From Muricea muricata (lineage: Eukaryota > Cnidaria > Anthozoa > Malacalcyonacea > Plexauridae), in NCBI GenBank assembly GCA_963855995.1, contig OY979723.1:129001-193000 (forward strand): a DNA stretch of 64,000 nucleotides, in the 5' to 3' direction. The notes under the pieces were generated by a model. It saw only the letters and a list, made by a program, of their open reading frames with translations, ran no database searches and was not told the origin of the DNA. The stretch's first letter is position 1; every line of letters starts with the position of its first letter. The position numbers and the translations under genes are program-made. Below are positions 1 to 64,000 of the stretch, piece after piece.

Positions 1-26
1 TTTCAAAAATGATCGCGTATGCCTTC

Positions 27-36
27 TTTCATGAAA
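27..36. other. Palindrome TTTCATGAAA, first instance of a motif in nearly every monomer
   Basis: Consensus positions 28-37 form a perfect 10-bp palindrome centred on CATG, flanked by T- and A-tracts. Only a handful of monomers break it, for example those with TCAAG near 31158, 32063, 34053 and 61183, TTCTTGAAA near 17763 and 21383, and TAATG at 7448, 15411 and 23916. It is a short dyad that could extrude or be read by a homodimeric protein, but no function is shown. Confidence 0.85.
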
Positions 37-385
37 AAAATCGTTTTGAGCCATTCAAACTCATTTTTGTAAGTTTTCAGAATTTCACCCTTGTCTAAGT
101 CCCAATCCAAGATCTGGTTTGTGGGGAAGTCTGGTGTGAAATATGGTAACTTGTCAAAATGGCTTTAAATCACTTGAAACTTTGCAAAAATGATCGCGTA
201 TGCCTTCTTTCATGAAAAATATCGTTTTGAGCCATTCAAACTCATTTTTGTAAGTTTTCAGAATTTCACCCTTGTCTAAGTCCCAATCCATGATTTGGTT
301 TGTGGGGAAGTCTGGTGTGAAACATGGTAACTTGTCAAAATGGCTTTAAATCACTTGAAACTTTTCAAAAATGATCGCGTATGCC

Positions 386-401
386 TTTTTTCATGAAAAA
401 A
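386..401. other. Extended 16-bp palindrome TTTTTTCATGAAAAAA, example
   Basis: Where the monomer carries GCCTTTTTTC instead of GCCTTCTTTC, and seven A residues follow CATG, the dyad grows to a perfect 16 bp. With the AAAAATATCG variant it is 14 bp. The long form recurs through much of the array, for example in D and E monomers of 38-52 kb. Arms are pure T and A, so a DNA hairpin would be weak but duplex bending is likely. Confidence 0.85.
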
Positions 402-904
402 ATCGTTTTGAGCCATTCAAACTCATTTTTGTAAGTTTTCAGAATTTCACCCTTGTCTAAGCCCCAATCCATGATTTGGTTTGTGGGGAAGTCTGGTGTG
501 AAATATGGTAACTTGTCAAAATGGCTTTAAATCACTTGAAACTTTGCAAAAATGATCGCGTATGCCTTCTTTCATGAAAAATATCGTTTTGAGCCATTCA
601 AACTCATTTTTGTAAGTTTTCAGAATTTCACCCTTGTCTAAGTCCCAATCCATGATTTGGTTTGTGGGGAAGTCTGGTGTGAAATATGGTAACTTGTCAA
701 AATGGCTTTAAATCACTTGAAACTTTTCAAAAATAATCGCGTATGCCTTTTTTCATGAAAAAAATCGTTTTGAGCCATTCAAACTCATTTTTGTAAGTTT
801 TCAGAATTTCACCCTTGTCTAAGCCCCAATCCATGATTTGGTTTGTGGGGAAGTCTGGTGTGAAATATGGTAACTTGTCAAAATGGCTTTAAATCACTTG
901 AAAC

Positions 905-1988
905 TTTGCAAAAATGATCGCGTATGCCTTCTTTCATGAAAAAAATCGTTTTTAGCCAGTCAAATTCATTTTTGTAAGTTTTCAGAATTTCACCCTTGTC
1001 TAAGTCCCAATCCATGATTTGGTTTGTGGGGAAGTCTGGTGTGAAATATGGTAACTTGTCAAAATGGCTTGAAAGCACTTGAAACTTTGCAAAAATGATC
1101 GCGTATGCCTTCTTCATGAAAAATATCGTTTTGAGGCATTCAAACTCATTTTTGTAAGTTTTCAGAATTTCACCCTTGTCTAAGTCCCAATCCATGATTT
1201 GGTTTGTGGGGAAGTCTGATGTGAAATATGGTAACTTGTCAAAATGGCTTTAAATCACTTGAAACTTTGCAAAAATGATCGCGTATGCCTTCTTTCATGA
1301 AAAATATCGTTTTGAGCTATTCAAACTCATTTTTGTAAGTTTTCAGAATTTCACCCTTGTCTAAGCCCCAATCCATGATTTGGTTTGTGGGGAAGTCTGG
1401 TGTGAAATATGGTAACTTGTCAAAATGGCTTTAAATCACTTGAAACTTTGCAAAAATGATCGCGTATGCCTTCTTTCATGAAAAAAATCGTTTTTAGCCA
1501 GTCAAATTCATTTTTGTAAGTTTTCAGAATTTCACCCTTGTCTAAGTCCCAATCCATGATTTGGTTTGTGGGGAAGTCTGGTGTGAAATATGGTAACTTG
1601 TCAAAATGGCTTGAAAGCACTTGAAACTTTGCAAAAATGATCGCGTATGCCTTCTTCATGAAAAATATCGTTTTGAGGCATTCAAACTCATTTTTGTAAG
1701 TTTTCAGAATTTCACCCTTGTCTAAGTCCCAATCCATGATTTGGTTTGTGGGGAAGTCTGATGTGAAATATGGTAACTTGTCAAAATGGCTTTAAATCAC
1801 TTGAAACTTTGCAAAAATGATCGCGTATGCCTTCTTTCATGAAAAATATCGTTTTGAGCTATTCAAACTCATTTTTGTAAGTTTTCAGAATTTCACCCTT
1901 GTCTAAGTCCCAATCCATAATTTGGTTTGTGGGGAAGTCTGGTGTGAAATATGGTAACTTGTCAAAATGGCTTTAAATCACTTGAAAC
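905..1988. repeat. 3-mer HOR, two copies of 542 bp
   Basis: Copies are 905-1446 and 1447-1988. The first two monomers of each copy are the same, including a rare 1-bp deletion (CTTCTTCATG, near 1112 and 1655), GAGGCATTC and GAAAGCAC. Because the deletion is shared, each copy is 542 rather than 543 bp, which marks one duplication event. The third monomers differ slightly: CCCCAATCCATGATT in the first copy, CCCAATCCATAATT in the second. The deletion lets a reverse-strand open frame run 105 codons through two monomers; I regard that as chance. Confidence 0.9.
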
Positions 1989-4900
1989 TTTGCAAAAATG
2001 ATCGCGTATGCCTTCTTTCATGAAAAATATCGTTTTGAGCCATTCAAACTCATTTTTGTAAGTTTTCAGAATTTCACCCTTGTCTAAGTCCCAATCCATG
2101 ATTTGGTTTGTGGGGAAGTCTGGTGTGAAACATGGTAACTTGTCAAAATGGCTTTAAATCACTTGAAACTTTTCAAAAATGATCGCGTATGCCTTCTTTC
2201 ATGAAAAAAATCGTTTTGAGCCATTCAAACTCATTTTTGTAAGTTTTCAGAATTTCACCCTTGTCTAAGTCCCAATCCAAGATCTGGTTTGTGGGGAAGT
2301 CTGGTGTGAAATATGGTAACTTGTCAAAATGGCTTTAAATCACTTGAAACTTTGCAAAAATGATCGCGTATGCCTTCTTTCATGAAAAATATCGTTTTGA
2401 GCCATTCAAACTCATTTTTGTAAGTTTTCAGAACTTCACCCTTGTCTAAGTCCCAATCCATGATTTGGTTTGTGGGGAAGTCTGGTGTGAAACATGGTAA
2501 CTTGTCAAAATGGCTTTAAATCACTTGAAACTGTGCAAAAATGATCGCGTATGCCTTTTTTCATGAAAAATATCGTTTTGAGCCATTCAAACTCATTTTT
2601 GTAAGTTTTCAGAATTTCACTTTTGTCTAAGTCCCAATCCATGATTTGGTTTGTGGGGAAGTCTGGTGTGAAATATGGTAACTTGTCAAAATGGCTTTAA
2701 ATCACTTGAAACTTTTCAAAAAAGATCGCGTATGCCTTTTTTCATGAAAAATATCGTTTTGAGCCATTCAAACTCATTTTTGTAAGTTTTCAGAATTTCA
2801 CCCTTGTCTAAGTCCAAATCCATGATTTGGTTTGTGGGGAAGTCTGATGTGAAATATGGTAACTTGTAAAAATGGCTTGAAATCACTTGAAACTTTGTAA
2901 AAATGATCGCGTATGCCTTTTTTCATGAAAAAAATCGTTTTAAGCCAGTCAAACTCATTTTTGTAAGTTTTCAGAATTTCACCCTTGTCTAAGTCCCAAT
3001 CCATGATTTGGTTTGTGGGGAAGTCTGGTGTAAAATATGGTAACTTGTCAAAATGGCTTTAAATCACTTGAAACTGTGCAAAAATGATCGCGTATGCCTT
3101 TTTTCATGAAAAATATCGTTTTGAGCCATTCAAACTCATTTTTGTAAGTTTTCAGAATTTCACTTTTGTCTAAGTCCCAATCCATGATTTGGTTTGTGGG
3201 GAAGTCTGGTGTGAAATATGGTAACTTGTCAAAATGGCTTGAAATCACTTGAAACTTTTCAAAAAAGATCACGTATGCCTTTTTTCATGAAAAATATCGT
3301 TTTGAGCCATTCAAACTCATTTTTGTAAGTTTTCAGAATTTCACCCTTGTCTAAGTACCAATCCATGATTTGGTTTGTGGGGAAGACTGATGTGAAATAT
3401 GGTAACTTGTCAAAATGGCTTTAAATCACTTGAAACTTTGCAAAAATGATCGCGTATGCCTTCTTTCATGAAAAATATCGTTTTGAGCTATTCAAACTCA
3501 TTTTTGTAAGTTTTCAGAATTTCACCCTTGTCTAAGTCCCAATCCATAATTTGGTTTGTGGGGAAGTCTGGTGTTAAATATGGTAACTTGTCAAAATGGC
3601 TTTAAATCACTTGAAACTTTGCAAAAATGATCGCGTATGCCTTCTTTCATGAAAAATATCGTTTTGAGCCATTCAAACTCATTTTTGTAAGTTTTCAGAA
3701 TTTCACCCTTGTCTAAGTCCCAATCCATGATTTGGTTTGTGGGGAAGTCTGGTGTGAAACATGGTAACTTGTCAAAATGGCTTTAAATCACTTGAAACTT
3801 TTCAAAAATGATTGCGTATGCCTTCTTTCATGAAAAAAATCGTTTTGAGCCATTCAAACTCATTTTTGTAAGTTTTCAGAATTTCACCCTTGTCTAAGTC
3901 CCAATCCAAGATCTGGTTTGTGGGGAAGTCTGGTGTGAAATATGGTAACTTGTCAAAATGGCTTTAAATCACTTGAAACTTTGCAAAAATGATCGCGTAT
4001 GCCTTCTTTCATGAAAAATATATTTTTGAGCCATTCAAACTCATTTTTGTAAGTTTTCAGAATTTCACCCTTGTCTAAGTCCCAATCCATGATTTGGTTT
4101 GTGGGGAAGTCTGGTGTGAAACATGGTAACTTGTCAAAATGGCTTTAAATCACTTGAAACTGTGCAAAAATGATCGCGTATACCTTTTTTCATGAAAAAT
4201 ATCGTTTTGAGCCATTCAAACTCATTTTTGTAAGTTTTCAGAATTTCACTTTTGTCTAAGTCCCAATCCATGATTTGGTTTGTGGGGAAGTCTGGTGTGA
4301 AATATGGTAACTTGTCAAAATGGCTTTAAATCACTTGAAACTTTTCAAAAAAGATCGCGTATGCCTTTTTTCATGAAAAATATCGTTTTGAGCCATTCAA
4401 ACTCATTTTTGTAAGTTTTCAGAATTTCACCCTTGTCTAAGTCCAAATCCATGATTTGGTTTGTGGGGAAGTCTGATGTGAAATATGGTAACTTGTAAAA
4501 ATGGCTTGAAATCACTTGAAACTTTGTAAAAATGATCGCGTATGCCTTTTTTCATGAAAAAAATCGTTTTAAGCCAGTCAAACTCATTTTTGTAAGTTTT
4601 CAGAATTTCACCCTTGTCTAAGTCCCAATCCATGATTTGGTTTGTGGGGAAGTCTGGTGTAAAATATGGTAACTTGTCAAAATGGCTTTAAATCACTTGA
4701 CACTGTGCAAAAATGATCGCGTATGCCTTTTTTCATGAAAAATATCGTTTTGAGCCATTCAAACTCATTTTTGTAAGTTTTCAGAATTTCACTTTTGTCT
4801 AAGTCCCAATCCATGATTTGGTTTGTGGGGAAGTCTGGTGTGAAATATGGTAACTTGTCAAAATGGCTTGAAATCACTTGAAACTTTTCAAAAAAGATCA

Positions 4901-5065
4901 CGTATGCCTTTTTTCATGAAAAAAATCGTTTTGAGCCATTCAAACTCATTTTTGTAAGTTTTCAGAATTTCACCCTTGTCTAAGTCCCAATCCATGATTT
5001 GGTTTGTGGTGAAGTCTGATGTGAAATATGGTAACTTGTCAAAATGGCTTTAAATCACTTGAAAT
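1808..5065. repeat. 9-mer HOR, two copies of 1629 bp
   Basis: Copies are 1808-3436 and 3437-5065. Order in both: A, an AAACATGG monomer, a monomer with AGATCT (2280 and 3909), a second AAACATGG monomer, F, a G-like monomer, a TTGTAAAAATG monomer with CTTGTAAAAATGG, F, and G with GATCACG (near 3269 and 4898). Shared rare changes confirm the period. A few private changes separate the copies, such as ATTGCG near 3812 and ATATATTTTTGAG near 4020. Confidence 0.9.
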
Positions 5066-7237
5066 TTTGCAAAAATGATCGCGTATGCCTTCTTTCATGA
5101 AAAATATCGTTTTGAGCTATTCAAACTCATTTTTGTAAGTTTTCAGAATTTCACCCTTGTCTAAGTCCCAATCCATGATTTGGTTTGTGGGGAAGTCTGG
5201 TGTAAAATATGGTAACTTGTCAAAATGGCTTTAAATCACTTGAAACTGTGCAAAAATGATCGCGTATGCCTTTTTTCATGAAAAATATCGTTTTGAGCCA
5301 TTCAAACTCATTTTTGTAAGTTTTCAGAATTTCACTTTTGTCTAAGTCCCAATCCATGATTTGGTTTGTGGGGAAGTCTGATGTGAAATATTGTAACTTG
5401 TCAAAATGGCTTTAAATCACTTGAAACTTTCCAAAAATGATCGCGTATGCCTTATTTCATGAAAAAAATCGTTTTTAGCCAGTCAAATTCATTTTTGTAA
5501 GTTTTCAGAATTTCACCCTTGTCTAAGTCCCAATCCATAATTTGGTTTGAGGGGAAGTCTGGTGTGAAATATGGTAACTGGTCAAAATGGCTTTAAATCA
5601 GTTGAAACTTTGCAAAAATGATCGCGTATGCCTTTTTTCATGAAAAAAATCGTTTTAAGCCAGTCAAACTCATTTTTGTAAGTTTTCAGAATTTCACCCT
5701 TGTCTAAGTCCCAATCCATGATTTGGTTTGTGGGGAAGTCTGGTGTGAAACATGGTAACTTGTCAAAATGGCTTGAAATCATTTGAAACTTTGCAAAAAT
5801 GATCGCGTATGCCTTCTTTCATGAGAAAAATCGTTTTGAGCCAGTCAAAATCATTTTTGTAAGTTTTCAGAATTTCACCCTTGTCTAAGTCCCAATCCAT
5901 GATTTGGTTTGTGGGGAAGTCTGGTGTGAAATATGGTAACTTGTCAAAATGGCTTTAAATCACTTGAAACTTTGTAAAAATGATCGCGTATGCCTTCTTT
6001 CATGAAAAAAATCGTTTTTAGCCAGTCAAACTCATTTTTGTAAATTTTCAGAATTTCGCCCTTGTCTAAGTCCCAATCCATGATTTGGTTTGTGGGGAAG
6101 TCTGATGTGAAATATGGTAACTTGTCAAAATGGCTTGAAATCACTTGAAACTTTGTAAAAATGATCGCGTATGCCTTTTTTCATGAAAAAAATCGTTTTA
6201 AGCCAGTCAAACTCATTTTTGTAAGTTTTCAGAATTTCACCCTTGTCTAAGTCCCAATCCATGATTTGGTTTGTGGGGAAGTCTGATGTGAAATATGGTA
6301 ACTTGTCAAAATGGCTTGAAATCACTTGAAACTTTGCAAAAATGATCGCGTATGCCTTCTTTCATGAAAAATATCGTTTTGAGCCATTCAAACTCATTTT
6401 TGTAAGTTTTCAGAATTTCACCCTTGTCTAAGTCCCAATCCATGATTTGGTTTGTGGGGAAGTCTTGTGTGAAATATGGTAACTTGTCAAAATGGCTTTA
6501 AATCACTTGAAACTTTGCAAAAATGATCGCGTATGCCTTTTTTCATGAAAAAAATCGTTTTGAGCCATTCAAACTCATTTTTGTAAGTTTTCAGAATTTC
6601 ACCCTTGTCTAAGTCCCAATCCATGATTTGGTTTGTGGGGAAGTCTGATGTGAAATATGGTAACTTGTCAAAATGGCTTGAAATCACTTGAAACTTTTCA
6701 AAAAACATCGCGTATGCCTTCTTTCATGAAAAAAATCGTTTTGAGCCATTCAAACTCATTTTTGTAAGTTTTCAGAATTTCACCCTTGTCTAAGTCCCAA
6801 TCCATGATTTGGTTTGTGGGGAAGTCTTGTGTGAAATATGGTAACTTGTCAAAATGGCTTTAAATCACTTGAAACTTTGCAAAAATGATCGCGTATGCCT
6901 TTTTTCATGAAAAAAATCGTTTTGAGCCATTCAAACTCATTTTTGTAAGTTTTCAGAATTTCACCCTTGTCTAAGTCCCAATCCATGATTTGGTTTGTGG
7001 GGAAGTCTGGTGTGAAATATGGTAACTTGTCAAAATGGCTTTAAATCACTTGAAACTTTGCAAAAATGATCGCGTATGCCTTTTTTCATGAAAAATATCG
7101 TTTTGAGCTATTCAAACTCATTTTTGTAAGTTTTCAGAATTTCACCCTTGTCTAAGTCCCAATCCATAATTTGGTTTGTGGGGAAGTCTGGTGTGAAATA
7201 TGGTAACTTGTCAAAATGGCTTTAAATCACTTGAAAC
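5066..7237. repeat. Mosaic satellite; 5247-6151 matches 9229-10133
   Basis: Five monomers from 5247 repeat the order seen from 9229, exactly 22 monomers (3982 bp) away. Markers are an F monomer ending GAAATATTGTAAC, a GCCTTATTTC monomer, a GAAACATGG monomer with AAATCATTTG, and a CATGAGAAAAATCG monomer. The remaining monomers are single-copy in order. Monomers near 6514 and 6876 prefigure the dimer seen at 14477-15200. No gene is visible. Confidence 0.75.
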
Positions 7238-8685
7238 TTTGCAAAAATGATCGCGTATGCCTTCTTTCATGAAAAATATCGTTTTGACCCATTCAAACTC
7301 ATTTTTGTAAGTTTTCAGAATTTCACCCTTGTCTAAGTCCCAATCCATGATTTGGTTTGTGGGGAAGTCTGGTGTGAAACATGGTAACTTGTCAAAATGG
7401 CTTTAAATCACTTGAAACTTTGCAAAAATGATCGCGTATGCCTTCTTTAATGAAAAATATCGTTTTGAGCCATTCAAACTCATTTTTGTAAGTTTTCAGA
7501 ATTTCACCCTTGTCTAAGTCCCAATCCATGATTTGGTTTGTGGGGAAGTCTGGTGTGAAATATGGTAACTTGTCAAAATGGCTTTAAATCACTTGAAACT
7601 TTGCAAAAATGATCGCGTATGCCTTTTTTCATGAAAAAAATCGTTTTAAGCCAGTCAAACCCATTTTTGTAAGTTTTCAGAATTTCGCCCTTGTCTAAAA
7701 CCCAATCCATGATTTGGTTTGTGGGGAAGTCTGATGTGAATTATGGTAACTTGTCAAAATGGCTTGAAATCACTTGAAACTTTGTAAAAATGATCGCGTA
7801 TGCCTTCTTTCATGAAAAATATCGTTTTGAGCCATTCAAACTCATTTTTGTAAGTTTTCAGAATTTCACCCTTGTCTAAGTCCAAATCCATGATTTGGTT
7901 TGTGGGGAAGTCTGGTGTAAAATATGGTAACTTGTCAAAATGGCTTTAAATCACTTGAAACTGTGCAAAAATGATCGCATATGCCTTTTTTCATGAAAAA
8001 TATCGTTTTGAGCCATTCAAACTCATTTTTGTAAGTTTTCAGAATTTCACTTTTGTCTAAGTCCCAATCCATGATTTGGTTTGTGGGGAAGTCTGGTGTG
8101 AAATATGGTAACTTGTCAAAATGGCTTTAAATCACTTGAAACTTTTCAAAAAAGATCGCGTATGCCTTTTTTCATGAAAAATATCGTTTTGAGCCATTCA
8201 AACTCATTTTTGTAAGTTTTCAGAATTTCACCCTTGTCTAAGTCCCAATCCATGATTTGGTTTGTGGGGAAGTCTGATGTGAAATATGGTAACTTGTAAA
8301 AATGGCTTGAAATCACTTGAAACTTTGTAAAAATGATCGCGTATGCCTTTTTTCATGAAAAAAATCGTTTTAAGCCAGTCAAACTCATTTTTGTAGGTTT
8401 TCAGAATTTCACCCTTGTCTAAGTCCCAATCCATGATTTGGTTTGTGGGGAAGTCTGGTGTAAAATATGGTAACTTGTCAAAATGGCTTTAAATCACTTG
8501 AAACTGTGCAAAAATGATCGCGTATGCCTTTTTTCATGAAAAATATCGTTTTGAGCCATTCAAACTCATTTTTGTAAGTTTTCAGAATTTCACTTTTGTC
8601 TAAGTCCCAATCCATGATTTGGTTTGTGGGGAAGTCTGGTGTGAAATATGGTAACTTGTCAAAATGGCTTTAAATCACTTGAAAC
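7238..8685. repeat. Copied 8-monomer block X, copy 1
   Basis: The block opens with a monomer carrying GACCCATTC, then one with TTCTTTAATG, then one with CTAAAACCC, then F- and G-like monomers. The same order occurs at 15201-16648 (offset 7963 bp, 44 monomers less one base) and 23706-25153 (a further 8505 bp, 47 monomers less two bases). Three non-adjacent copies show movement over distances far above the local HOR size. Confidence 0.85.
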
Positions 8686-11600
8686 TTTGCAAAAATGATC
8701 GCGTATGCCTTCTTTCATGAAAAATATCGTTTTGAGCCATTCAAACTCATTTTTGTAAGTTTTCAGAATTTCACCCTTGTCTAAGTCCCAATCCATGATT
8801 TGGTTTGTTGGGAAGTCTGGTGTGAAATATGGTAACTTGTCAAAATGGCTTTAAATCACTTGAAACTTTGCAAAAATGATCGCGTATGCCTTTTTTCATG
8901 AAAAAAATCGTTTTAAGCCAGTCAAACCCATTTTTGTAAGTTTTCAGAATTTCGCCCTTGTCTAAAACCCAATCCATGATTTGGTTTGTGGGGAAGTCTG
9001 ATGTGAAATATGGTAACTTGTCAAAATGGCTTGAAATCACTTGAAACTTTGTAAAAATGATCGCGTATGCCTTCTTTCATGAAAAAAATCGTTTTGAGCC
9101 ATTCAAACTCATTTTTGTAAGTTTTCAGAATTTCACCCTTGTCTAAGTCCCAATCCATGATTTGGTTTGTGGGGAAGTCTGGTGTAAAATATGGTAACTT
9201 GTCAAAATGGCTTTAAATCACTTGAAACTGTGCAAAAATGATCGCGTATGCCTTTTTTCATGAAAAATATCGTTTTGAGCCATTCAAACTCATTTTTGTA
9301 AGTTTTCAGAATTTCACTTTTGTCTAAGTCCCAATCCATGATTTGGTTTGTGGGGAAGTATGATGTGAAATATTGTAACTTGTCAAAATGGCTTTAAATC
9401 ACTTGAAACTTTGCAAAAATGATCGCGTATGCCTTATTTCATGAAAAAAATCGTTTTTAGCCAGTCAAATTCATTTTTGTAAGTTTTCAGAATTTCACCC
9501 TTGTCTAAGTCCCAATCCATAATTTGGTTTGTGGGGAAGTCTGGTGTGAAATATGGTAACTTGTCAAAATGGCTTTAAATCACTTGAAACTTTGCAAAAA
9601 TGATCGCGTATGCCTTTTTTCATGAAAAAAATCGTTTTAAGCCAGTCAAACTCATTTTTGTAAGTTTTCAGAATTTCACCCTTGTCTAAGTCCCAATCCA
9701 TGATTTGGTTTGTGGGGAAGTCTGGTGTGAAACATGGTAACTTGTCAAAATGGCTTGAAATCATTTGAAACTTTGCAAAAATGATCGCGTATGCCTTCTT
9801 TCATGAGAAAAATCGTTTTGAGCCAGTCAAAATCATTTTTGTAAGTTTTCAGAATTTCACCCTTGTCTAAGTCCCAATCCATGATTTGGTTTGTGGGGAA
9901 GTCTGGTGTGAAATATGGTAACTTGTCAAAATGGCTTTAAATCACTTGAAACTTTGTAAAAATGATCGCCTATGCCTTCTTTTATGAAAAAAATCGTTTT
10001 AAGCCAGTCAAACTCATTTTTGTAAGTTTTCAGAATTTCACCCTTGTCTAAGTCCCAATCCATTATTTCGTTTGTGGGGAAGTCTGATGTGAAATATGGT
10101 AACTTGTCAAAATGGCTTGAAATCACTTGAAACTTTGCAAAAATGATCGCGTATGCCTTCTTTCATGAAAAATATCGTTTTGAGCTATTCAAACTCATTT
10201 TTGTAAGTTTTCAGAATTTCACCCTTGTCTAAGTCCCAATCCATGATTTGGTTTGTGGGGAAGTCTGGTGTAAAATATGGTAACTTGTCAAAATGGCTTT
10301 AAATCACTTGAAACTGTGCAAAAATGATCGCGTATGCCTTTTTTCATGAAAAATATCGTTTTGAGCCATTCAAACTCATTTTTGTAAGTTTTCAGAATTT
10401 CACCCTTGTCTAAGTCCCAATCCATGATTTGGTTTGTGGGGAAGTCTGGTGTGAAATATGGTAACTTGTCAAAATGGCTTTAAATCACTTGAAACTGTGC
10501 AAAAATGATCGCATATGCCTTTTTTCATGAAAAATATCGTTTTGAGCCATTCAAACTCATTTTTGTAAGTTTTCAGAATTTCACTTTTGTCTAAGTCCCA
10601 ATCCATGATTTGGTTTGTGGGGAAGTCTGGTGTGAAATATGGTAACTTGTCAAAATGGCTTTAAATCACTTGAAACTTTTCAAAAAAGATCGCGTATGCC
10701 TTTTTTCATGAAAAATATCGTTTTGAGCCATTCAAACTCATTTTTGTAAGTTTTCAGAATTTCACCCTTGTCTAAGTCCCAATCCATGATTTGGTTTGTG
10801 GGGAAGTCTGATGTGAAATATGGTAACTTGTAAAAATGGCTTGAAATCACTTGAAACTTTGTAAAAATGATCGCGTATGCCTTTTTTCATGAAAAAAATC
10901 GTTTTAAGCCAGTCAAACTCATTTTTGTAAGTTTTCAGAATTTCACCCTTGTCTAAGTCCCAATCCATGATTTGGTTTGTGGGGAAGTCTGGTGTAAAAT
11001 ATGGTAACTTGTCAAAATGGCTTTAAATCACTTGAAACTGTGCAAAAATGATCGCGTATGCCTTTTTTCATGAAAAATATCGTTTTGAGCCATTCAAACT
11101 CATTTTTGTAAGTTTTCAGAATTTCACTTTTGTCTAAGTCCCAATCCATGATTTGGTTTGTGGGGAAGTCTGGTGTGAAACATGGTAACTTGTCAAAATG
11201 GCTTTAAATCACTTGAAACTTTGCAAAAATGATCGCGTATGCCTTCTTTCATGAAAAATATCGTTTTGAGCCATTCAAACTCAATTTTGTAAGTTTTCAG
11301 AATTTCACCCTTGTCTAAGTCCCAATCCATGATTTGGTTTGTTGGGAAGTCTGGTGTGAAATATGGTAACTTGTCAAAATGGCTTTAAATCACTTGAAAC
11401 TTTGCAAAAATGATCGCGTATGCCTTTTTTCATGAAAAAAATCGTTTTAAGCCAGTCAAACCCATTTTTGTAAGTTTTCAGAATTTCGCCCTTGTCTAAA
11501 ACCCAATCCATGATTTGGTTTGTGGGGAAGTCTGATGTGAAATATGGTAACTTGTCAAAATGGCTTGAAATCACTTGAAACTTTGTAAAAATGATCGCGT

Positions 11601-14657: not shown

Positions 14658-15200
14658 TTTGCAAAAATGATCGCGTATGCCTTTTTTCATGAAAAAAATC
14701 GTTTTGAGCCATTCAAACTCATTTTTGTAAGTTTTCAGAATTTCACCCTTGTCTAAGTCCCAATCCATGATTTGGTTTGTGGGGAAGTCTGGTGTGAAAT
14801 ATGGTAACTTGTCAAAATGGCTTGAAATCACTTGAAACTTTTCAAAAAAGATCGTGTATGCCTTCTTTCATGAAAAAAATCGTTTTGAGCCATTCAAACT
14901 CATTTTTGTAAGTTTTCAGAATTTCACCCTTGTCTAAGTCCCAATCCATGATTTGGTTTGTGGGGAAGTCTTGTGTGAAATATGGTAACTTGTCAAAATG
15001 GCTTTAAATCACTTGAAACTTTGCAAAAATGATCGCGTATGCCTTTTTTCATGAAAAAAATCGTTTTGAGCCATTCAAACTCATTTTTGTAAGTTTTCAG
15101 AATTTCACCCTTGTCTAAGTCCCAATCCATGATTTGGTTTGTGGGGAAGTCTGGTGTGAAATATGGTAACTTGTCAAAATGGCTTTAAATCACTTGAAAC
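14477..15200. repeat. 2-mer duplication, 362-bp period
   Basis: The pair of a G-like TTTTCAAAAAAGATC monomer with GTCTTGTGTG and a TTTGC monomer with GCCTTTTTTC occurs twice, at 14477-14838 and 14839-15200. The second copy has GATCGTG instead of GATCGCG near 14853. A related pair lies near 6695-7056. Confidence 0.8.
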
Positions 15201-19542: not shown

Positions 19543-19723
19543 TTTGTAAAAATGATCGCGTATGCCTTTTTTCATGAAAAAAATCGTTTTAAGCCAGTCA
19601 AACTCATTTTTGTAAGTTTTCAGAATTTCACCCTTGTCTAAGTCCCAATCCATGATTTGGTTTGTGGGGAAGTCTGGTGTAAAATATGGTAACTTGTCAA
19701 AATGGCTTTAAATCACTTGAAAC

Positions 19724-51800: not shown

Positions 51801-52103
51801 ACTCATTTTTGTAAGTTTTCAGAATTTCACCTTTTTCTAAGTCCCAATCCATGATTTGGTTTGTGGGGAAGTCTGGTGTGAAACATGGTAACTTGTCAAA
51901 ATGGCTTTAAATCACTTGAAACTTTTCAAAAATGATCGCGTATGCCTTCTTTCATGAAAAAAATCGTTTTGAGCCATTCAAACTCATTTTTGTAAGTTTT
52001 CAGAATTTCACCCTTGTCTAAGTCCCAATCCATGATTTGGTTTGTAGGGAAGTCTGATGTGAAATATGGTAACTTGTCAAAATGGCTTGAAATCACTTGA
52101 AAC
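48846..52103. repeat. 6-mer HOR D'-D-E-A-B-C, three copies of 1086 bp
   Basis: Units are 48846-49931, 49932-51017 and 51018-52103, each exactly 6 x 181. Monomer starts in the second unit are 49932, 50113, 50294, 50475, 50656 and 50837. The first unit uses the CATGATCTGG monomer in place of A and a B with CCCTTGTCTAAG. Units 2 and 3 are nearly identical; private changes include GAAGTGTGATG near 50423 and CAGATTTTCGCC near 51097. This is the most regular HOR run in the window. Confidence 0.95.
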
Positions 52104-53370
52104 TTTGTAAAAATGATGGCGTATGCGTTTTTTCATGAAAAAAATCGTTTTAAGCCAGTCAAACTCATTTTTGTAAGTTTTCAGAATTTCGCCCTTGTCT
52201 AAGTCCCAATCCATGATTTGGTTTGTGGGGAAGTCTGATGTGAAATATGGTAACTTGTCAAAATGGCTTGAAATCACTTGAAACTTTGTAAAAATGATCG
52301 CGTATGCCTTTTTTCATGAAAAAAATCGTTTTAAGCCAGTCAAACTCATTTTTGTAAGTTTTCAGAATTTCACCCTTGTCTAAGTCCCAATCCATGATTT
52401 GGTTTGTGGGGAAGTCTGGTGTAAAATATGGTAACTTGTCAAAATGGCTTTAAATCACTTGAAACTGTGCAAAAATGATCGCGTATGCCTTTTTTCATGA
52501 AAAATATCGTTTTGAGCCATTCAAACTCATTTTTGTAAGTTTTCAGAATTTCACTTTTGTCTAAGTCCCAATCCATGATTTGGTTTGTGGGGAAGTCTGG
52601 TGTGAAATATGGTAACTTGTCAAAATGGCTTTAAATCACTTGAAACTTTTCAAAAAAGATCGCGTATGCCTTTTTTCATGAAAAATATCGTTTTGAGCCA
52701 TTCAAACTCATTTTTGTAAGTTTTCAGAATTTCACCCTTGTCTAAGTCCCAATCCATGATTTGGTTTGTGGGGAAGTCTGATGTGAAATATTGTAACTTG
52801 TCAAAATGGCTTTAAATCACTTGAAACTTTGCAAAAATGATCGCGTATGCCTTCTTTCATGAAAAATATCGTTTTGAGCTATTCAAACTCATTTTTGTAA
52901 GTTTTCAGAATTTCACCCTCGTCTAAGTCCCAATCCATAATTTGGTTTGTGGGGAAGTCTGGTGTGAAATATGGTAACTTGTCAAAATGGCTTTAAATCA
53001 CTTGAAACTTTGCAAAAATGATCGCGTATGCCTTCTTTCATGAAAAATATCGTTTTGAGCCATTCAAACTCATTTTTGTAAGTTTTCAGAATTTCACCCT
53101 TGTCTAAGTCCCAATCCATGATTTGGTTTGTGGGGAAGTCTGGTGTGAAACATGGTAACTTGTCAAAATGGCTTTAAATCACTTGAAACTTTTCAAAAAT
53201 GATCGCGTACGCCTTCTTTCATGAAAAAAATCGTTTTGAGCCATTCAAACTCATTTTTGTAAGTTTTCAGAATTTCACCCTTGTTTAAGTCCCAATCCAT
53301 GATTTGGTTTGTGGGGAAGTCTGGTGTGAAATATGGTAACTTGTCAAAATGGCTTTAAATCACTTGAAAC
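52104..53370. repeat. 9-mer HOR, partial copy 4, at the domain boundary
   Basis: Monomers D' 52104, D 52285, F 52466, G 52647, A 52828 (CACCCTCG), B 53009 and C 53190 follow the 9-mer order. Unlike copies 1-3, B here is full length, and F keeps GTGGGGAAG and is preceded by TATGGTAAC. It therefore looks like the form that existed before the 5-bp deletion. After C the array changes to the right-hand subfamily. Confidence 0.88.
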
Positions 53371-56265: not shown

Positions 56266-59200
56266 TTTGCAAAAATGATCGCGTATGCCTTCTTTCATGA
56301 AAAAAATCGTTTTGAGCCAGTCAAAATCATTTTTGTAAGTTTTTCAGAATTTCACCCTTGTTTAAGTCTCAATCCATGATTTGGTTTGTGGGGAAGTCTG
56401 GTGTGAAATATGGTAACTTGTCAAAATGGCTTTAAATCACTTGAAACTTTGCAAAAATGATCGCGTATTCCTTCTTTCATGAAAAAAATCGTTTTGAGCC
56501 AGTCAAAATCATTTTTGTAAGTTTTCAGAATTTCACCCTTTTTTAAGTCCCACTCCATGATTTGGTTTGTGGGGAAGTCTGATGTGAAATATGGTAACTT
56601 GTCAAAATGGCTTTAAATCACTTGAAACTTTGCAAAAATGATCGCGTATGCCTTCTTTCATGAAAAAAATCGTTTTTAGCCACTCAAACTCATTTTTGTA
56701 AGTTTTCAGAATTTCGCCCTTGTCTAAGTCCCAATCCATGATTTGGTTTGTGGGGAAGTCTGGTGTGAAATATGGTAACTTGTCAAAATGGCTTTAAATC
56801 ACTTGAAACTTTGTAAAAATGATCGCGTATGCCTTCTTTCATGAAAAATATCGTTTTGAGCCATTCAAACTCATTTTTTTAAGTTTTCAGAATTTCACCC
56901 TTGTCTAAGTCCCAATCCATGATTTGGTTTGTGGGGAAGTCTAGTGTGAAATATGGTAACTTGTCAAAATGGCTTTAAATCACTTGAAACTTTGCAAAAA
57001 TGATCGCGTATGCCTTCTTTCATGAAAAAAATCGTTTTGAGCCAGTCAAAATCATTTTTGTAAGTTTTCAGAATTTCACCCTTGTTTAAGTCCCAATCCA
57101 TGATTTGGTTTGTGGGGAGGTCTGGTGTGAAATATGGTAACTTGTCAAAATGGCTTTAAATCACTTGAAACTTTGCAAAAATGATCGCGTATGTCTTCTT
57201 TCATGAAAAGAATCGTTTTAAGCCAGTCAAACTCATTTTTGTAAAATTTCAGAATTTCACCCTTGTCTAAGTCCCAATCCAAGATTTGGTTTGTGGGGAA
57301 GTCTAGTGTGAAATATGGTAACATGTCAAAATGGCTTGAAATCACTTGAAACTTTGGAAAAATGATCGCGTATGCCTTTTTTCATGAAAAAAATCGTTTT
57401 AAGCCAGTCAAACTCATTTTTGTAAGTTTTCAGAATTTCGCCCTTGTCTAAGTCCCAATCCATGATTTGGTTTTTGCGGAAGTCTAGTGTGAAATATGGT
57501 AACTTGTCAAAATGGCTTTAAATCACTCTAAACTTTGCAAAAATGATCGCGTATGCCTTTTTTCATGAAAAATATCGTTTTGAGCCATTCAAACTCATTT
57601 TTGTAAGTTTTCAGAATTTCACCCTTGTCTAAGTCTCAATATATGGTTTGGTTTGTGGGGAAGTCTGGTGTGAAATATGGTAACTTGTCAAAATGGCTTT
57701 AAATCACTTGAAACTTTGCAAAAATGATCGCGTATGCCTTTTTTCATGAAAAAAATCGTTTTAAGCCAGTCAAACTCATTTTTGTAAGTTTTCAGAATTT
57801 CGCCCTTGTCTAAGTCCCAATCCATAATTTGGTTTGTGGGGAAGTCACGTGTGAAATATGGTAACTTGTCAAAATGGCTTGAAATCACTTGAAACTTTGC
57901 AAAAATGATCGCGTATGCCTTCTTTCATGAAAAAAATCGTTTTGAGCCAGTCAAAATCATTTTTGTAAGTTTTTCAGAATTTCACCCTTGTTTAAGTCCC
58001 AATCCATGATTTGGTTTGTGGGGAAGTCTGGTGTGAAATATGGTAACTTGTCAAAATGGCTTTAAATCACTTGAAACTTTGCAAAAATGATCGCGTATTC
58101 CTTCTTTCATGAAAAAAATCGTTTTGAGCCAGTCAAAATCATTTTTGTAAGTTTTCAGAATTTCACCCTTTTTTAAGTCCCACTCCATGATTTGGTTTGT
58201 GGGGAAGTCTTGTGTGAAATATGGTAACTTGTCAAAATGGCTTTAAATCACTTGAAACTTTGCAAAAATGATCGCGTATGCCTTCTTTCATGAAAAAAAT
58301 CGTTTTTAGCCACTCAAACTCATTTTTGTAAGTTTTCAGAATTTCACCCTTGTCTAAGTCCGAATCCATGATTTGGTTTGTGGGGAAGTCTGGTGTGAAA
58401 TATGGTAACTAGTCAAAATGGCTTGAAATCACTTGAAACTTTGCAAAAATGATCGCGTATGCCTTCTTTCATGAAAAATATCGTTTTGAGCCATTCAAAC
58501 TCATTTTTTTAAGTTTTTAGAATTTCACCCTTGTCTAAGTCCCAATCCATGATTTGATTTGTGGGGAAGTCTAGTGTGAAATATGGTATTTTGTCAAAAT
58601 GGCTTTAAATCACTTGAAACTTTGCAAAAATGATCGCGTATGCCTTCTTTCATGAAAAAAATCGTTTTGAGCCAGTCAAAATCATTTTTGTAAGTTTTCA
58701 GAATTTCACCCTTGTTTAAGTCCCAATCCATGATTTGGTTTGTGGGGAGGTCTGGTGTGAAATATGGTAACTTGTCAAAATGGCTTTAAATCACTTGAAA
58801 CTTTGCAAAAATGATCGCGTATGTCTTCTTTCATGAAAAAAATCGTTTTAAGCCAGTCAAACTCATTTTTGTAAGTTTTCAGAATTTCACCCTTGTCTAA
58901 GTCCCAATCCAAGATTTGGTTTGTGGGGAAGTCTAGTGTGAAATATGGTAACCTGTCAAAATGGCTTGAAATCACTTGAAACTTTGGAAAAATGATCGCG
59001 TATGCCTTTTTTCATGAAAAAAATCGTTTTAAGCCAGTCAAACTCATTTTTGTAAGTTTTCAGAATTTCGCCCTTGTCTAAGTCCCAATCCATGATTTGG
59101 TTTTTGCGGAAGTCTAGTGTGAAATATGGTAACTTGTCAAAATGGCTTTAAATCACTCTAAACTTTGCAAAAATGATCGCGTATGCCTTTTTTCATGAAA

Positions 59201-59344
59201 AATATCGTTTTGAGCCATTCAAACTCATTTTTGTAAGTTTTCAGAATTTCACCCTTGTCTAAGTCTCAATCCATGGTTTGGTTTGTGGGGAAGTCTGGTG
59301 TGAAATATGGTAACTTGTCAAAATGGCTTGAAATAACTTGAAAC
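56266..59344. repeat. Right-domain 9-mer HOR, 1630-bp period
   Basis: The unit starting 56266 recurs at 57896. Eight monomers match (56266-57714 and 57896-59344) with one separating monomer at 57715-57895. The lead monomer has an extra T (GTTTTTCAG, near 56342 and 57972), making it 182 bp and the period 9 x 181 + 1. Other shared marks are CGTATTCC, TATGTCTTC, TTTGGAAAAATG, TTTTTGCGGAAG and CACTCTAAACTTT. GTCACGTGTG ends the monomer before each copy (56214 and 57844). Confidence 0.9.
57172..57714. repeat. 3-monomer segment copied to 63139-63681
   Basis: Rare changes shared only by these two places include CATGAAAAGAATCG, GTAAAATTTCAG, GGTAACATGTC and CAATATATGGTTTGG. The offset is 5967 bp (33 monomers less 6 bases). 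The version in the neighbouring 9-mer copy (58802-59344) lacks these four marks, so the distant copy is closer than the adjacent one. Confidence 0.9.
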
Positions 59345-60067
59345 TTTGCAAAAATGTTCACGTATGCCTTCTTTCATGAAAAAAATCGTTTTTAGCCAGT
59401 CAAACTCATTTTTGTAAGTTTTCAGAATTTCACCCTTGTCTAAGTCCTAATCCATGATTTGGTTTGTGCGGAACTCAGGTGTGAAATATGGTAACTTGTC
59501 AAAATGGCTTTAAATCACCTGAAACTTTTCAAAACTGATCGCGTATGCCTTCTTTCATGAAAAATATCGTTTTGAGCCATTCAAACTCATTTTTGTAAGT
59601 TTTCAGAATTTCACCCTTGTTTAAGTCCCAATCCATGATTTGGTTTGTGGGGAAGTCTGGTGTGAAATATGGTAACTTGTCAAAATGGCTTTAAATCACT
59701 TGAAACTTTGCAAAAATGATCGCGTATGGCTTCTTTCATGAAAAAATCGTTTTGAGCCAGTCAAAATCATTTTTGTAAGTTTTCAGAATTTCACCCTTGT
59801 TTAAGTCCCAATCCATGATTTGGTTTGTGGGGAAGTCTGGTGTGAAATATGGTAACTTGTCAAAATAGCTTTAAATCACTTGAAACTTTGCAAAAATGAT
59901 CGCGTATGCCTTCTTTCATGAAAAAAATCGTTTTGAGCCAGTCAAAATCATTTTTGTAAGTTTTCAGAATTTCACCCTTGTCTAAGTCCCAATCCATGAT
60001 TTGGTTTGTGGGGAAGTCTGGTGTGAAATATGGTAACTTCTCAAAATGGCTTTAAATCACTTGAAAC
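59345..60067. repeat. Link between the 9-mer and the 722-bp units
   Basis: Four monomers: one with ATGTTCACG and CGGAACTCAGG, one starting TTTTCAAAACTG, one with TATGGCTTC and one A short near 59747, and one GTCAAAATC monomer ending TAACTTCTC. The first two foreshadow the 722-bp unit that follows. Confidence 0.75.
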
Positions 60068-61511
60068 TTTGCAAAAATGATCGCGTATGCCGTCTTTCAT
60101 GAAAAAAATCGTTTTGAGCCAGTCAAAATCATTTTTGTAAGTTTTCAGAATTTCACCCTTGTCTAAGTCCTAATCCATGATTTGGTTTGTGCGGAACTCA
60201 GGTGTGAAATATGGTAACTTGTCAAAATGGCTTTAAATCACCTGAAACTTTTCAAAACTGATCGCGTATGCCTTCTTTCATGAAAAATATCGTTTTGAGC
60301 CATTCAAACTCATTTTTGTAAGTTTTCAGAATTTCACCCTTGTTTAAGTCCCAATCCATGATTTGGTTTGTGGGGAAGTCTGGTGTGAAATATGGTAACT
60401 TGTCAAAATGGCTTGAAATCACTTGAAACTTTGCAAAAATGATCGCGTATGCCTTTTTTCATGAAAAAATCGTTTTAAGCCAGTCAAACTCATTTTTGTA
60501 AGTTTTCAGAATTTCGCCCTTGTCTAAGTCCCAATCCATGATTTGGTTTGTGGGGAAGTCTAGTGTGAAATATGGTAACTTGTCAAAATGGCTTGAAATC
60601 ACTTGAAACTTTGCAAAAATGATCGCGTATGCCTTCTTTCATGAAAAAATCGTTTTGAGCCAGTCAAAATCATTTTTGTATGTTTTCAGAATTTCACCCT
60701 TGTTTAAGTCCCAATCCATGATTTGGTTTGTGGGGAAGTCTGGTGTGAAATCTGGTAACTTGTCAAAATGGCTTTAAATCACTTGAAACTTTGCAAAAAT
60801 GATCGCGTATGCCTTCTTTCATGAAAAAAATCGTTTTGAGCCAGTCAAAATCATTTTTGTAAGTTTTCAGAATTTCACCCTTGTCTAAGTCCTAATCCAT
60901 GATTTGGTTTGTGCGGAACTCAGGTGTGAAATATGGTAACTTGTCAAAATGGCTTTAAATCACCTGAAACTTTTCAAAACTGATCGCGTATGCCTTCTTT
61001 CATGAAAAATATCGTTTTGAGCCATTCAAACTCATTTTTGTAAGTTTTCAGAATTTCACCCTTGTTTAAGTCCCAATCCATGATTTGGTTTGTGGGGAAG
61101 TCTGGTGTGAAATATGGTAACTTGTCAAAATGGCTTGAAATCACTTGAAACTTTGCAAAAATGATCGCGTATGCCTTTTTTCAAGAAAAAATCGTTTTAA
61201 GCCAGTCAAACTCATTTTTGTAAGTTTTCAGAATTTCGCCCTTGTCTAAGTCCCAATCCATGATTTGGTTTGTGGGGAAGTCTAGTGTGAAATATGGTAA
61301 CTTGTCAAAATGGCTTGAAATCACTTGAAACTTTGCAAAAATGATCGCGTATGCCTTCTTTCATGAAAAAATCGTTTTGAGCCAGTCAAAATCATTTTTG
61401 TAAGTTTTCAGAATTTCACCCTTGTTTAAGTCCCAATCCATGATTTGGTTTGTGGGGAAGTCTGGTGTGAAATCTGGTAACTTGTCAAAATGGCTTTAAA
61501 TCACTTGAAAC
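60068..61511. repeat. 4-mer HOR Y, two copies of 722 bp
   Basis: Copies are 60068-60789 and 60790-61511. Each contains a monomer with GTCCTAATCC and CGGAACTCAGG, a TTTTCAAAACTG monomer, and two monomers each one A short in the poly-A tract, giving 4 x 181 - 2. A third copy is at 62417-63138. The shared short tracts show the four monomers moved as one unit. Confidence 0.92.
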
Positions 61512-62416
61512 TTTGCAAAAATGATCGCGTATGCCTTCTTTCATGAAAAAAATCGTTTTGAGCCAGTCAAAATCATTTTTGTAAGTTTTCAGAATTTCAC
61601 CCTTGTCTAAGTCCCAATCCATGATTTGGTTTGTGGGGAAGTCTGGTGTGAAATATGGTAACTTCTCAAAATGGCTTTAAATCACTTGAAACTTTGCAAA
61701 AATGATCGCGTATGCCGTCTTTCATGAAAAAAATCGTTTTGAGCCAGTCAAAATCATTTTTGTAAGTTTTCAGAATTTCACCCTTGTTTAAGTCCCAATC
61801 CATGATTTGGTTTGTGGGGAAGTCTGGTGTGAAATATGGTAACTTTTCAAAATGGCTTTAAATCACTTGAAACTTTGCAAAAATGATCGCGTATGCCTTC
61901 TTTCATGAAAAAAATCGTTTTGAGCCAGTCAAAATCATTTTTGTAAGTTTTCAGAATTTCACCCTTGTCTAAGTCCCAATCCATGATTTGGTTTGTGGGG
62001 AAGTCTGGTGTGAAATATGGTAACTTCTCAAAATGGCTTTAAATCACTTGAAACTTTGCAAAAATGATCGCGTATGCCGTCTTTCATGAAAAAAATCGTT
62101 TTGAGCCAGTCAAAATCATTTTTGTAAGTTTTCAGAATTTCACCCTTGTTTAAGTCCCAATCCATGATTTGGTTTGTGGGGAAGTCTGGTGTGAAATATG
62201 GTAACTTTTCAAAATGGCTTTAAATCACTTGAAACTTTGCAAAAATGATCGCGTATGCCTTCTTTCATGAAAAAAATCGTTTTGAGCCAGTCAAAATCAT
62301 TTTTGTAAGTTTTCAGAATTTCACCCTTGTCTAAGTCCCAATCCATGATTTGGTTTGTGGGGAAGTCTGGTGTGAAATATGGTAACTTCTCAAAATGGCT
62401 TTAAATCACTTGAAAC
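61512..62416. repeat. Dimer HOR Z, 362-bp period
   Basis: Pairs start at 61512, 61874 and 62236. The first monomer has TCTAAGTC and TAACTTCTC; the second has GCCGTCTTTC (61715, 62077, 62439) with TTTAAGTC and TAACTTTTC. In the third pair the second monomer, 62417, keeps GCCGTC but continues as the first monomer of unit Y. Another pair closes the window at 63682-64000. Confidence 0.92.
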
Positions 62417-63138
62417 TTTGCAAAAATGATCGCGTATGCCGTCTTTCATGAAAAAAATCGTTTTGAGCCAGTCAAAATCATTTTTGTAAGTTTTCAGAAT
62501 TTCACCCTTGTCTAAGTCCTAATCCATGATTTGGTTTGTGCGGAACTCAGGTGTGAAATATGGTAACTTGTCAAAATGGCTTTAAATCACCTGAAACTTT
62601 TCAAAACTGATCGCGTATGCCTTCTTTCATGAAAAATATCGTTTTGAGCCATTCAAACTCATTTTTGTAAGTTTTCAGAATTTCACCCTTGTTTAAGTCC
62701 CAATCCATGATTTGGTTTGTGGGGAAGTCTGGTGTGAAATATGGTAACTTGTCAAAATGGCTTGAAATCACTTGAAACTTTGCAAAAATGATCGCGTATG
62801 CCTTTTTTCATGAAAAAATTGTTTTAAGCCAGTCAAACTCATTTTTGTAAGTTTTCAGAATTTCGCCCTTGTCTAAGTCCCAATCCATGATTTGGTTTGT
62901 GGGGAAGTCTAGTGTGAAATATGGTAACTTGTCAAAATGGCTTGAAATCACTTGAAACTTTGCAAAAATGATCGCGTATGCCTTCTTTCATGAAAAAATC
63001 GTTTTGAGCCAGTCAAAATCATTTTTGTAAGTTTTCAGAATTTCACCCTTGTTTAAGTCCCAATCCATGATTTGGTTTGTGGGGAAGTCTGGTGTGAAAT
63101 ATGGTAACTTGTCAAAATGGCTTTAAATCACTTGAAAC
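62417..63138. repeat. 4-mer HOR Y, copy 3 (722 bp)
   Basis: It matches 60068-60789, including the GCCGTC front of the first monomer, which copy 2 lacks. One private change is AAAAAATTGTTTT near 62818. It is followed directly by the long-range copy from 57172. Confidence 0.9.
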
Positions 63139-64000
63139 TTTGCAAAAATGATCGCGTATGTCTTCTTTCATGAAAAGAATCGTTTTAAGCCAGTCAAACT
63201 CATTTTTGTAAAATTTCAGAATTTCACCCTTGTCTAAGTCCCAATCCAAGATTTGGTTTGTGGGGAAGTCTAGTGTGAAATATGGTAACATGTCAAAATG
63301 GCTTGAAATCACTTGAAACTTTGGAAAAATGATCGCGTATGCCTTTTTTCATGAAAAAAATCGTTTTAAGCCAGTCAAACTCATTTTTGTAAGTTTTCAG
63401 AATTTCGCCCTTGTCTAAGTCCCAATCCATGATTTGGTTTTTGCGGAAGTCTAGTGTGAAATATGGTAACTTGTCAAAATGGCTTTAAATCACTCTAAAC
63501 TTTGCAAAAATGATCGCGTATGCCTTTTTTCATGAAAAATATCGTTTTGAGCCATTCAAACTCATTTTTGTAAGTTTTCAGAATTTCACCCTTGTCTAAG
63601 TCTCAATATATGGTTTGGTTTGTGGGGAAGTCTGGTGTGAAATATGGTAACTTGTCAAAATGGCTTTAAATCACTTGAAACTTTGCAAAAATGATCGCGT
63701 ATGCCTTTTTTCATGAAAAAAATCGTTTTGAGCCAGTCAAAATCATTTTTGTAAGTTTTCAGAATTTCACCCTTGTCTAAGTCCCAATCCATGATTTGGT
63801 TTGTGGGGAAGTCTGGTGTGAAATATGGTAACTTCTCAAAATGGCTTTAAATCACTTGAAACTTTGCAAAAATGATCGCGTATGCCGTCTTTCATGAAAA
63901 AAATCGTTTTGAGCCAGTCAAAATCATTTTTGTAAGTTTTCAGAATTTCACCCTTGTTTAAGTCCCAATCCATGATTTGGTTTGTGGGGAAGTCTGGTGT
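63139..64000. repeat. Right edge: copied segment plus partial Z dimer
   Basis: Monomers 63139, 63320 and 63501 copy those at 57172-57714. Similarity drops soon after 63728, in monomer 63682, which takes the Z-dimer form (GTCAAAATC, TAACTTCTC). The window ends 138 bases into monomer 63863, which carries GCCGTC. The array continues beyond the window. Confidence 0.85.

What the first reader, a model, noticed from the sequence alone, without database searches (positions are those of the whole stretch)
1..64000. Unrecognised 181-bp satellite with HORs whose size changes along the array
Distinct HOR periods of 2, 3, 4, 5, 6, 8, 9, 11 and 14 monomers occur within 64 kb, often nested. Well-known alpha satellite HOR arrays usually keep one period over long distances, so this looks like an array in active turnover. 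I do not recognise the monomer from any family I know.
Basis: partly seen in the sequence, partly recalled or inferred. Interest (0 to 1): 0.7.

Follow-up and report, generated by a model that had tools for sequence, protein, structure and literature searches.

The report
Octocoral chromosome-end satellite in turnover
This stretch is part of an 81-kb run of a 181-letter DNA repeat that sits near the ends of many chromosomes of an octocoral (the group of soft corals and sea fans); its mixed super-repeats look like ordinary local copying, and the many sister runs make it a good natural experiment on how such repeats change.

Summary
The window is one uninterrupted 181-bp tandem array, the middle of an 81.2-kb array at G000:C8:124158-205342. 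The mixed super-repeats are real: 84 multi-monomer runs against 0.69 in shuffled order. They are local tandem duplications of 2-3 copies; no period runs through the array. Seven of the nine listed periods hold strictly, 9 at a looser cut-off, and 11 falls short of two copies. The genome is an octocoral (mitochondrial mutS). The satellite is subtelomeric: 15 identical left and 14 identical right junctions give at least 18 arrays on 12 of 16 large contigs, at both ends of six, which argues against a centromere. Best explanation: one founding array, born where a duplicated armadillo-repeat (delta-catenin-like) gene meets a PLAT-like gene, spread between chromosome ends with its flanks, while interiors turn over by in-register unequal exchange. 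Some array pairs keep monomer order at their edges, then lose it abruptly. Monomers are little differentiated between arrays (Fst-like 0.05); block order is shared less between arrays than within one. Literature searches found no description; Repbase and Dfam could not be searched. Known kind (analogue: bean khipu satellite), probably new member.

The parts
1..64000 (+). 181-bp satellite array, middle part; whole array is G000:C8:124158-205342 (about 448 monomers)
768..1854 (+). 3-monomer block, 2 copies
1671..5291 (+). 9-monomer block, 2.2 copies (only at 4 differences or fewer per monomer; run of 8 monomers at 2 or fewer)
7825..12893 (+). 14-monomer block, 2 copies
11807..14703 (+). 8-monomer block, 2 copies, overlapping the 14-monomer pair
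18320..19406 (+). 3-monomer block, 2 copies
24293..26465 (+). 6-monomer block, 2 copies
32076..35515 (+). lag-11 partial duplication (run of 6 monomers at 2 differences or fewer, 8 at 4 or fewer; less than two full copies)
38229..39677 (+). 4-monomer block, 2 copies
41663..43835 (+). 5-monomer block, 2.4 copies
49614..52329 (+). 6-monomer block, 2.5 copies (3.5 at the looser cut-off, from 48528)
57035..62465 (+). 30-monomer segment repeated 43 monomers further on (copy lies outside the window, C8 about 193.8-199.2 kb), 1 difference in all
60112..61560 (+). 4-monomer block, 2 copies
61375..62461 (+). 2-monomer block, 3 copies
61918..64000 (+). 10-monomer block, 2 identical copies, running 1.5 kb past the window end

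Best explanation
The window is the inside of a subtelomeric satellite array of an octocoral. SHOWN: the array begins 124 kb from a contig end that carries TTAGGG-type repeats. At least 18 arrays of the same satellite exist near ends of 12 of the 16 large contigs; 16 of 18 have the same orientation towards the nearer contig end, and each has at least one of two base-identical boundaries. The distal flank also exists in copies without satellite in which the sequence reads on. Arrays differ in length; some pairs of arrays on different chromosomes keep the same monomer order for 3-18 monomers from an edge and then lose it abruptly; and the local block duplications are in register. INFERRED: the distal boundary lies just inside an exon of an armadillo-repeat (delta-catenin-like) gene copy and the proximal boundary next to a PLAT-like gene; the satellite-bearing state is derived. 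A founding array formed once at that rearrangement joint and spread to other ends by ectopic exchange between subtelomeres, carrying its flanks. Within each array, unequal exchange between misaligned sister chromatids (or gene conversion) duplicates and deletes blocks of whole monomers, which creates transient super-repeats of many sizes. The satellite probably codes for nothing and serves as chromosome-end heterochromatin and as homology for exchange.
For: CCCTAA repeats occupy C8:5001-10000, the first 5,000 bases reading N. Genome-wide, 5,650 places carry the satellite 29-mer with up to 2 mismatches, against 0 for the reversed control. Left junction: 15 places, all 0 mismatches. Right junction: 14 places, all 0 mismatches. 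Distal flank: 24 near-full-length copies at 99-100% (40 of 1,329 candidates scored). Proximal flank: 11 full-length copies at 99-100%, plus 3 split by an indel (40 of 2,482 candidates scored). Satellite-free site: 14 places, 12 of them exact, 9 of which coincide with near-full-length flank copies. Twenty of 20 spot samples inside 9 further arrays were satellite, with 34-83% consensus 11-mers. Edge order: C8L/C7R about 10 monomers from the right edge, C5L/C16R about 17-18, C7L/C5R about 9 from the left, C8L/C16L 3. Mean identity within arrays 0.949-0.966, between arrays 0.945-0.962. Block order: 54 monomers of C15R share 19 runs (longest 4) with C8L, against a median of 29 (longest median 9) for same-size pieces of C8L; 1 of 66 pieces had as few runs. 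Block runs far exceed shuffles. A neutral model of random in-register block duplication and deletion gives mixed tandem periods in 24 of 24 runs.
Against: The model makes more runs (208-1,299) than the 129 seen in the whole array, so purely local turnover at equilibrium does not fit; input from other arrays or rarer events is needed. Between-array block sharing is lower than within but well above shuffle (C15R 19 against 0.4, C2L 6 against 0.2, C3L 2 against 0.07), so short blocks are not private; for C2L (13 monomers) the deficit is not distinguishable (17 of 73 pieces as low). Differentiation is small but above every permutation (0.050 against a maximum of 0.024). At the left edge 8 of 10 compared pairs share no order beyond background. 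No raw reads: recent near-identical blocks could be assembly errors. Arrays at C2L and C13L run the other way. Seven of 18 arrays show only one canonical junction. Gene names of the flanks rest on short pieces: the armadillo piece and the PLAT piece are below Pfam cut-offs, and two further pieces gave no match. The role as chromosome-end heterochromatin is untested.
Confidence: 0.8

Rival explanations
1. Centromeric satellite with evolving higher-order repeats, as the first reader's proposed CENP-A test implies.
For: Nucleosome-sized monomer and super-repeats, as in many centromeres (recalled); the array structure itself is.
Against: Arrays at both ends of C5, C7, C8, C12, C13 and C16; no junction on C1, C4, C9 or C14 and no exact 29-mer for C1 or C4 among the 100 listed rows (a partial listing); 0 CENP-B-box-like sites with up to 1 mismatch, where 4.25 are expected by chance, a weak test outside mammals.
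Confidence: 0.04
2. Assembly artefact: collapsed or wrongly ordered repeats create the block structure.
For: No reads available; a 5.4-kb copy with 1 difference and 10 identical monomers at lag 10 could come from mis-assembly; contigs C2 and C11 begin inside the satellite.
Against: Many duplicated blocks carry 1-2 differences per monomer; edge order agrees between some different chromosomes; junctions are identical at 14-15 places at different distances from the contig ends.
Confidence: 0.07
3. A mobile cassette: array plus gene-bearing flanks bounded by inverted repeats, spreading and flipping as a unit.
For: Satellite-bearing and satellite-free copies of the flank face each other at C3L, C5L, C5R, C6L, C13L and C16R; at C13L the satellite side is flipped although the first bases of the contig have the orientation of C7L.
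Against: No transposase or target duplication was looked for. The shared flank reaches about 7.5 kb distally between C2 and C15, limited by what was fetched, as expected of plain subtelomeric exchange. The terminal sequence is a poor compass: at C7R it runs opposite to C5R and C12R. The C13L flip could be a scaffolding error.
Confidence: 0.1
4. A tandemly repeated coding sequence (long minus-strand frames).
For: Two 123-aa open stretches on the minus strand.
Against: 181 is not a multiple of 3; only 2 stop-free stretches of 120 aa or more in 64 kb; no Pfam match above its cut-off, the best being Transgly at 19.2 bits against 27.
Confidence: 0.02

Closest known systems
khipu subtelomeric satellite of common bean (PMC3797529, passages seen)
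   Same: Subtelomeric; related units spread among non-homologous chromosome ends plus local duplication; very uneven numbers between ends (0-555 units per arm).
   Different: 528-bp unit, plant, blocks of 2-55 copies; sequences not compared. Here arrays reach 88 kb (about 486 monomers by length) and share base-identical junctions.
Human alpha-satellite higher-order arrays (recalled)
   Same: Nucleosome-sized head-to-tail monomers with multi-monomer repeats.
   Different: Centromeric, one long-running period per array and chromosome-specific variants; here subtelomeric, no running period, monomers little differentiated between sampled arrays.
Arabidopsis CEN178 local higher-order repeats (recalled; listing only)
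   Same: Short, local, variable-size higher-order repeats without a fixed period.
   Different: Centromeric and plant; not compared by sequence.
Human subtelomeric segmental duplications (named in a passage and reference of PMC3797529)
   Same: Blocks shared among many chromosome ends by interchromosomal exchange.
   Different: Here many of the shared blocks carry a satellite array that ends at the same base.

Membership tests
Subtelomeric satellite DNA | Long head-to-tail array of near-identical units | tested here: met
Subtelomeric satellite DNA | Located near the ends of several chromosomes | tested here: met
   all 29 junctions lie within about 2-222 kb of a contig end, on 12 of the 16 large contigs; telomere repeats were read at the left ends of C1, C6 and C8 only; not every end was read
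Subtelomeric satellite DNA | Cytological location at chromosome ends | not testable with these tools
   needs FISH
Centromeric satellite | One array region per monocentric chromosome | tested here: not met
   both ends of six large contigs
Centromeric satellite | CENP-A occupancy | not testable with these tools
   needs ChIP
Alpha-type higher-order array | One period dominating over many copies | tested here: not met
   identity flat with lag; 2-3 copies per block at 2 differences or fewer
Alpha-type higher-order array | Chromosome-specific monomer variants | tested here: inconclusive
   Fst-like 0.05, small but above all permutations (maximum 0.024), 9 arrays, 18 monomers each, several of them edge samples
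Already described satellite family | Sequence match in Repbase or Dfam | not testable with these tools
   libraries not available

The most novel reading that the evidence does not exclude
The arrays are the filling of an inverted-repeat-bounded subtelomeric cassette (armadillo-gene flank, satellite, PLAT-like gene, facing satellite-free flank) that moves between non-homologous chromosome ends as a unit and flips by recombination between its inverted flanks, so that one genome holds 18 or more replicate lineages of a single satellite founding event.
Probability: 0.2. Interest if true: 0.6.

Novelty: new member of a known kind. Interest (0 to 1): 0.42.

Why it matters
Satellite turnover is often inferred from single arrays. 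Here one genome holds 11 arrays with the same two junctions but different lengths, and, where sampled, different interiors. Some edges preserve a shared order while interiors record later exchange, so the rates and block sizes of unequal exchange, and of exchange between chromosomes, could be estimated with internal replicates. The ground also seems little charted in octocorals: the main texts of two octocoral genome papers hold neither 'satellite' nor 'telomer'.

Tried and rejected
Centromere reading: dropped because arrays occupy both ends of six large contigs. CENP-B-box-like motif: none. Known RNA in flanking samples: no Rfam match in L010, L013 or L017. Coding satellite: two 123-aa open stretches only, no Pfam match above cut-off. 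Naming the distal gene: one 33-aa piece matches armadillo proteins in the PDB (engineered protein 2.7e-5, Vac8 3.3e-4, catenin delta-1 0.004); the neighbouring 44-aa piece matched nothing in Pfam or the PDB and the 29-aa exon piece nothing in the PDB, so 'delta-catenin-like' is partly my recall. Species name: mtMutS and cox2 (Pfam COX2) point to Octocorallia; Gorgonia ventalina (339 Mb, 16 chromosomes, abstract) and Eunicella cavolini (490 Mb, 17, passages) do not fit 453 Mb, and the species stayed unidentified. Published description: searches listed none for an octocoral subtelomeric satellite; the other searches had other aims. The simulation shows sufficiency only and overshoots the number of runs. 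C3L comparisons from the right edge are unusable because C3L carries insertions; one search shows C3L sharing the last few pieces. After the filing check I added a same-size control for block sharing, which weakened 'private' to 'shared less', and the C7R orientation, which lowered the cassette reading from 0.25 to 0.2 (its rival entry from 0.12 to 0.10) and the main confidence from 0.82 to 0.8.
Full report
What is there. The window is G000:C8:129001-193000 of a 453-Mb, 74-contig eukaryotic genome. TRF describes 4-64000 as one array, period 181, 353.7 copies, 95% matches. Wrap-around alignment gives 352 whole monomers with 97.2% mean identity to consensus; 331 are exactly 181 bp. The full array is C8:124158-205342, 81,185 bp; of its 450 pieces 411 are 181 bp, and a 103-bp and a 37-bp piece sit at the right edge.

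The super-repeats. In the window, 84 runs of at least 3 consecutive monomer pairs with 2 or fewer differences occur at lags up to 60, against a mean of 0.69 and a maximum of 5 in 500 shuffles; 272 of 353 monomers lie in such a block. For the whole array the count is 129 against a mean of 0.64, with a longest run of 30 against 4 (200 shuffles). Periods with at least two adjacent copies at this cut-off inside the window are 2, 3, 4, 5, 6, 8 and 14; period 10 crosses the window's end. Period 9 needs a looser cut-off and lag 11 does not reach two copies at either cut-off tried. Mean identity is flat with lag, so there is no running higher-order period.

Organism. The left ends of C1, C6 and C8 carry CCCTAA repeats (the first bases of C1 and C8 read N). 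Contig C74 has cox1, cox2 and a MutS domain. mtMutS is called unique to Octocorallia, with one octocoral genus member known to lack it (PMC10167242, passages). So this is an octocoral; the species is not identified.

Place in the genome. A conserved 29-mer of the satellite occurs 5,650 times with up to 2 mismatches, 0 in the reversed control; this is about 1.0 Mb by multiplication, a lower bound. The left boundary, where flank turns into satellite, occurs at 15 places and the right boundary at 14, all without a mismatch. Pairing them gives 11 arrays with both boundaries: C3L 10.2 kb, C5L 78.5, C5R 51.0, C6L 36.8, C7L 88.0, C8L 81.2, C8R 66.7, C13L 68.7, C15R 77.8, C16L 39.8 and C16R 73.8. Seven more have one boundary: C2L, C7R, C10R, C11L, C12L, C12R and C13R; C2 and C11 begin inside the satellite. 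Only C8L and C3L were read whole. Twenty of 20 spot samples of 200 bp in the nine other two-boundary arrays were satellite. Seen from the nearer contig end, 16 of 18 arrays have the same orientation; C2L and C13L are reversed. Six large contigs have arrays at both ends, which speaks against a simple centromere reading.

Flanks. The distal flank holds armadillo-repeat coding pieces: a 33-aa piece matches engineered and Vac8 armadillo proteins and catenin delta-1 (E 0.004) in the PDB but stays below the Pfam Arm cut-off; two further pieces matched nothing. It also holds an MFS transporter frame, above cut-off. The proximal flank holds a PLAT-like piece (E 0.001, below cut-off). The 1.9-kb distal flank has 24 near-full-length copies at 99-100% identity. 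Fifteen of them belong to the satellite junctions. The other nine coincide with satellite-free sites, where the sequence reads on; this was read directly at C3:351001-351200 only. By my reading of the splice sites, the array begins a few bases into an exon. The satellite-free site occurs at 14 places, 12 exact, one of them 6.45 Mb inside C8, so I take the satellite-bearing state as derived. Older copies of the proximal flank on C14 and C16 (80-93% near the joint) match from the joint on and show no satellite before it.

Turnover. I compared 3.9 kb at edges of five arrays per side. From the right edge, C8L and C7R stay in step for about 10 monomers, C5L and C16R for about 17-18, and all four for about 5. 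From the left edge, C7L and C5R stay in step for about 9 and C8L and C16L for 3 (C2L joins the latter two); the other 8 of 10 left-edge pairs show no shared order. Beyond the shared part, differences return abruptly to background. Mean monomer identity is 0.949-0.966 within and 0.945-0.962 between the ten sampled arrays (monomers under 88% identity or with more than 6 gaps were dropped). Differentiation is small but above all permutations: Fst-like 0.050, maximum 0.024, on nine arrays of 18 monomers each. Block order is shared between arrays above shuffle (C8L/C15R 19 runs against 0.4, longest 4; C8L/C2L 6 against 0.2; C8L/C3L 2 against 0.07), but less than within C8L: same-size pieces of C8L share a median of 29 runs with the rest (range 19-47) and a longest run of median 9; 1 of 66 pieces had as few runs and 2 of 66 as short a longest run as C15R. 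For C2L the difference is not distinguishable. So the arrays draw on one pool of monomers and short blocks, and the longer block repeats are mostly local, as far as sampled.

Mechanism. A model of random in-register block duplication and deletion with mutation, tuned towards the observed divergence, gives many tandem periods in each of 24 runs. It makes more runs (208-1,299) than observed (129), so either block events are rarer or part of the diversity comes from exchange with other arrays; the shared pool fits the latter. In-register joints favour homology-driven exchange. No maintained higher-order structure is needed.

What is known. The khipu satellite of common bean behaves alike: related units spread between non-homologous ends plus local duplication (PMC3797529, passages). 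This octocoral satellite is therefore filed as a new member of a known kind, with the unusual asset of replicate arrays sharing exact boundaries. Whether it is in Repbase or Dfam is unchecked.

Flipping. At C13L the order from the end is satellite-free flank (+), right junction (-), left junction (-), satellite-bearing flank (-), while the contig's first bases have the orientation of C7L. This is what recombination between the inverted flank copies would give. Against it, the terminal sequence is itself found in both senses at right ends (C7R against C5R and C12R), and a scaffolding error is not excluded.

Noticed in passing
L010 (G000:C8:60000-69999): A 7.5-kb unit repeated in tandem (2,504 bp seen twice at 99.96%) between telomere and satellite, with a short-period minisatellite that, by eye, also starts contig C9.
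   Followed up: partly
L048 (G000:C3:169501-179500): The short C3 array is interrupted by a 1.7-kb insertion with inverted-repeat-like ends (by eye) and a second one of about 0.8 kb, unlike the uninterrupted window array.
   Followed up: no
L024 (G000:C1:38414782-38416095): Nuclear copy of mitochondrial cox1 with one in-frame stop, a cox2-like frame alongside.
   Followed up: no
G000:C1-C16: Very uneven contig sizes: 124, 72 and 61 Mb, then thirteen of 11.6-19.2 Mb; satellite junctions are mostly on the small ones.
   Followed up: no
G000:C10:1-200 and C10:13900596-13900795: Both ends of contig C10 share another sequence motif in the same orientation (by eye), possibly a second terminal repeat.
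   Followed up: no
G000:C8:6452504-6452863: An interior copy of the satellite-free exon site with a 79% similar stretch before it, perhaps nearer the ancestral gene.
   Followed up: no
left junction, e.g. C3:169561-169628: A 36-bp tandem duplication of the intron-exon joint directly precedes the satellite, a possible footprint of the founding event.
   Followed up: partly
L046, L047 (C16 and C14 relatives of the proximal flank): At the joint the satellite-free relatives carry a word resembling the satellite monomer; the C14 copy shares 10 bases with it, perhaps microhomology, perhaps chance.
   Followed up: no
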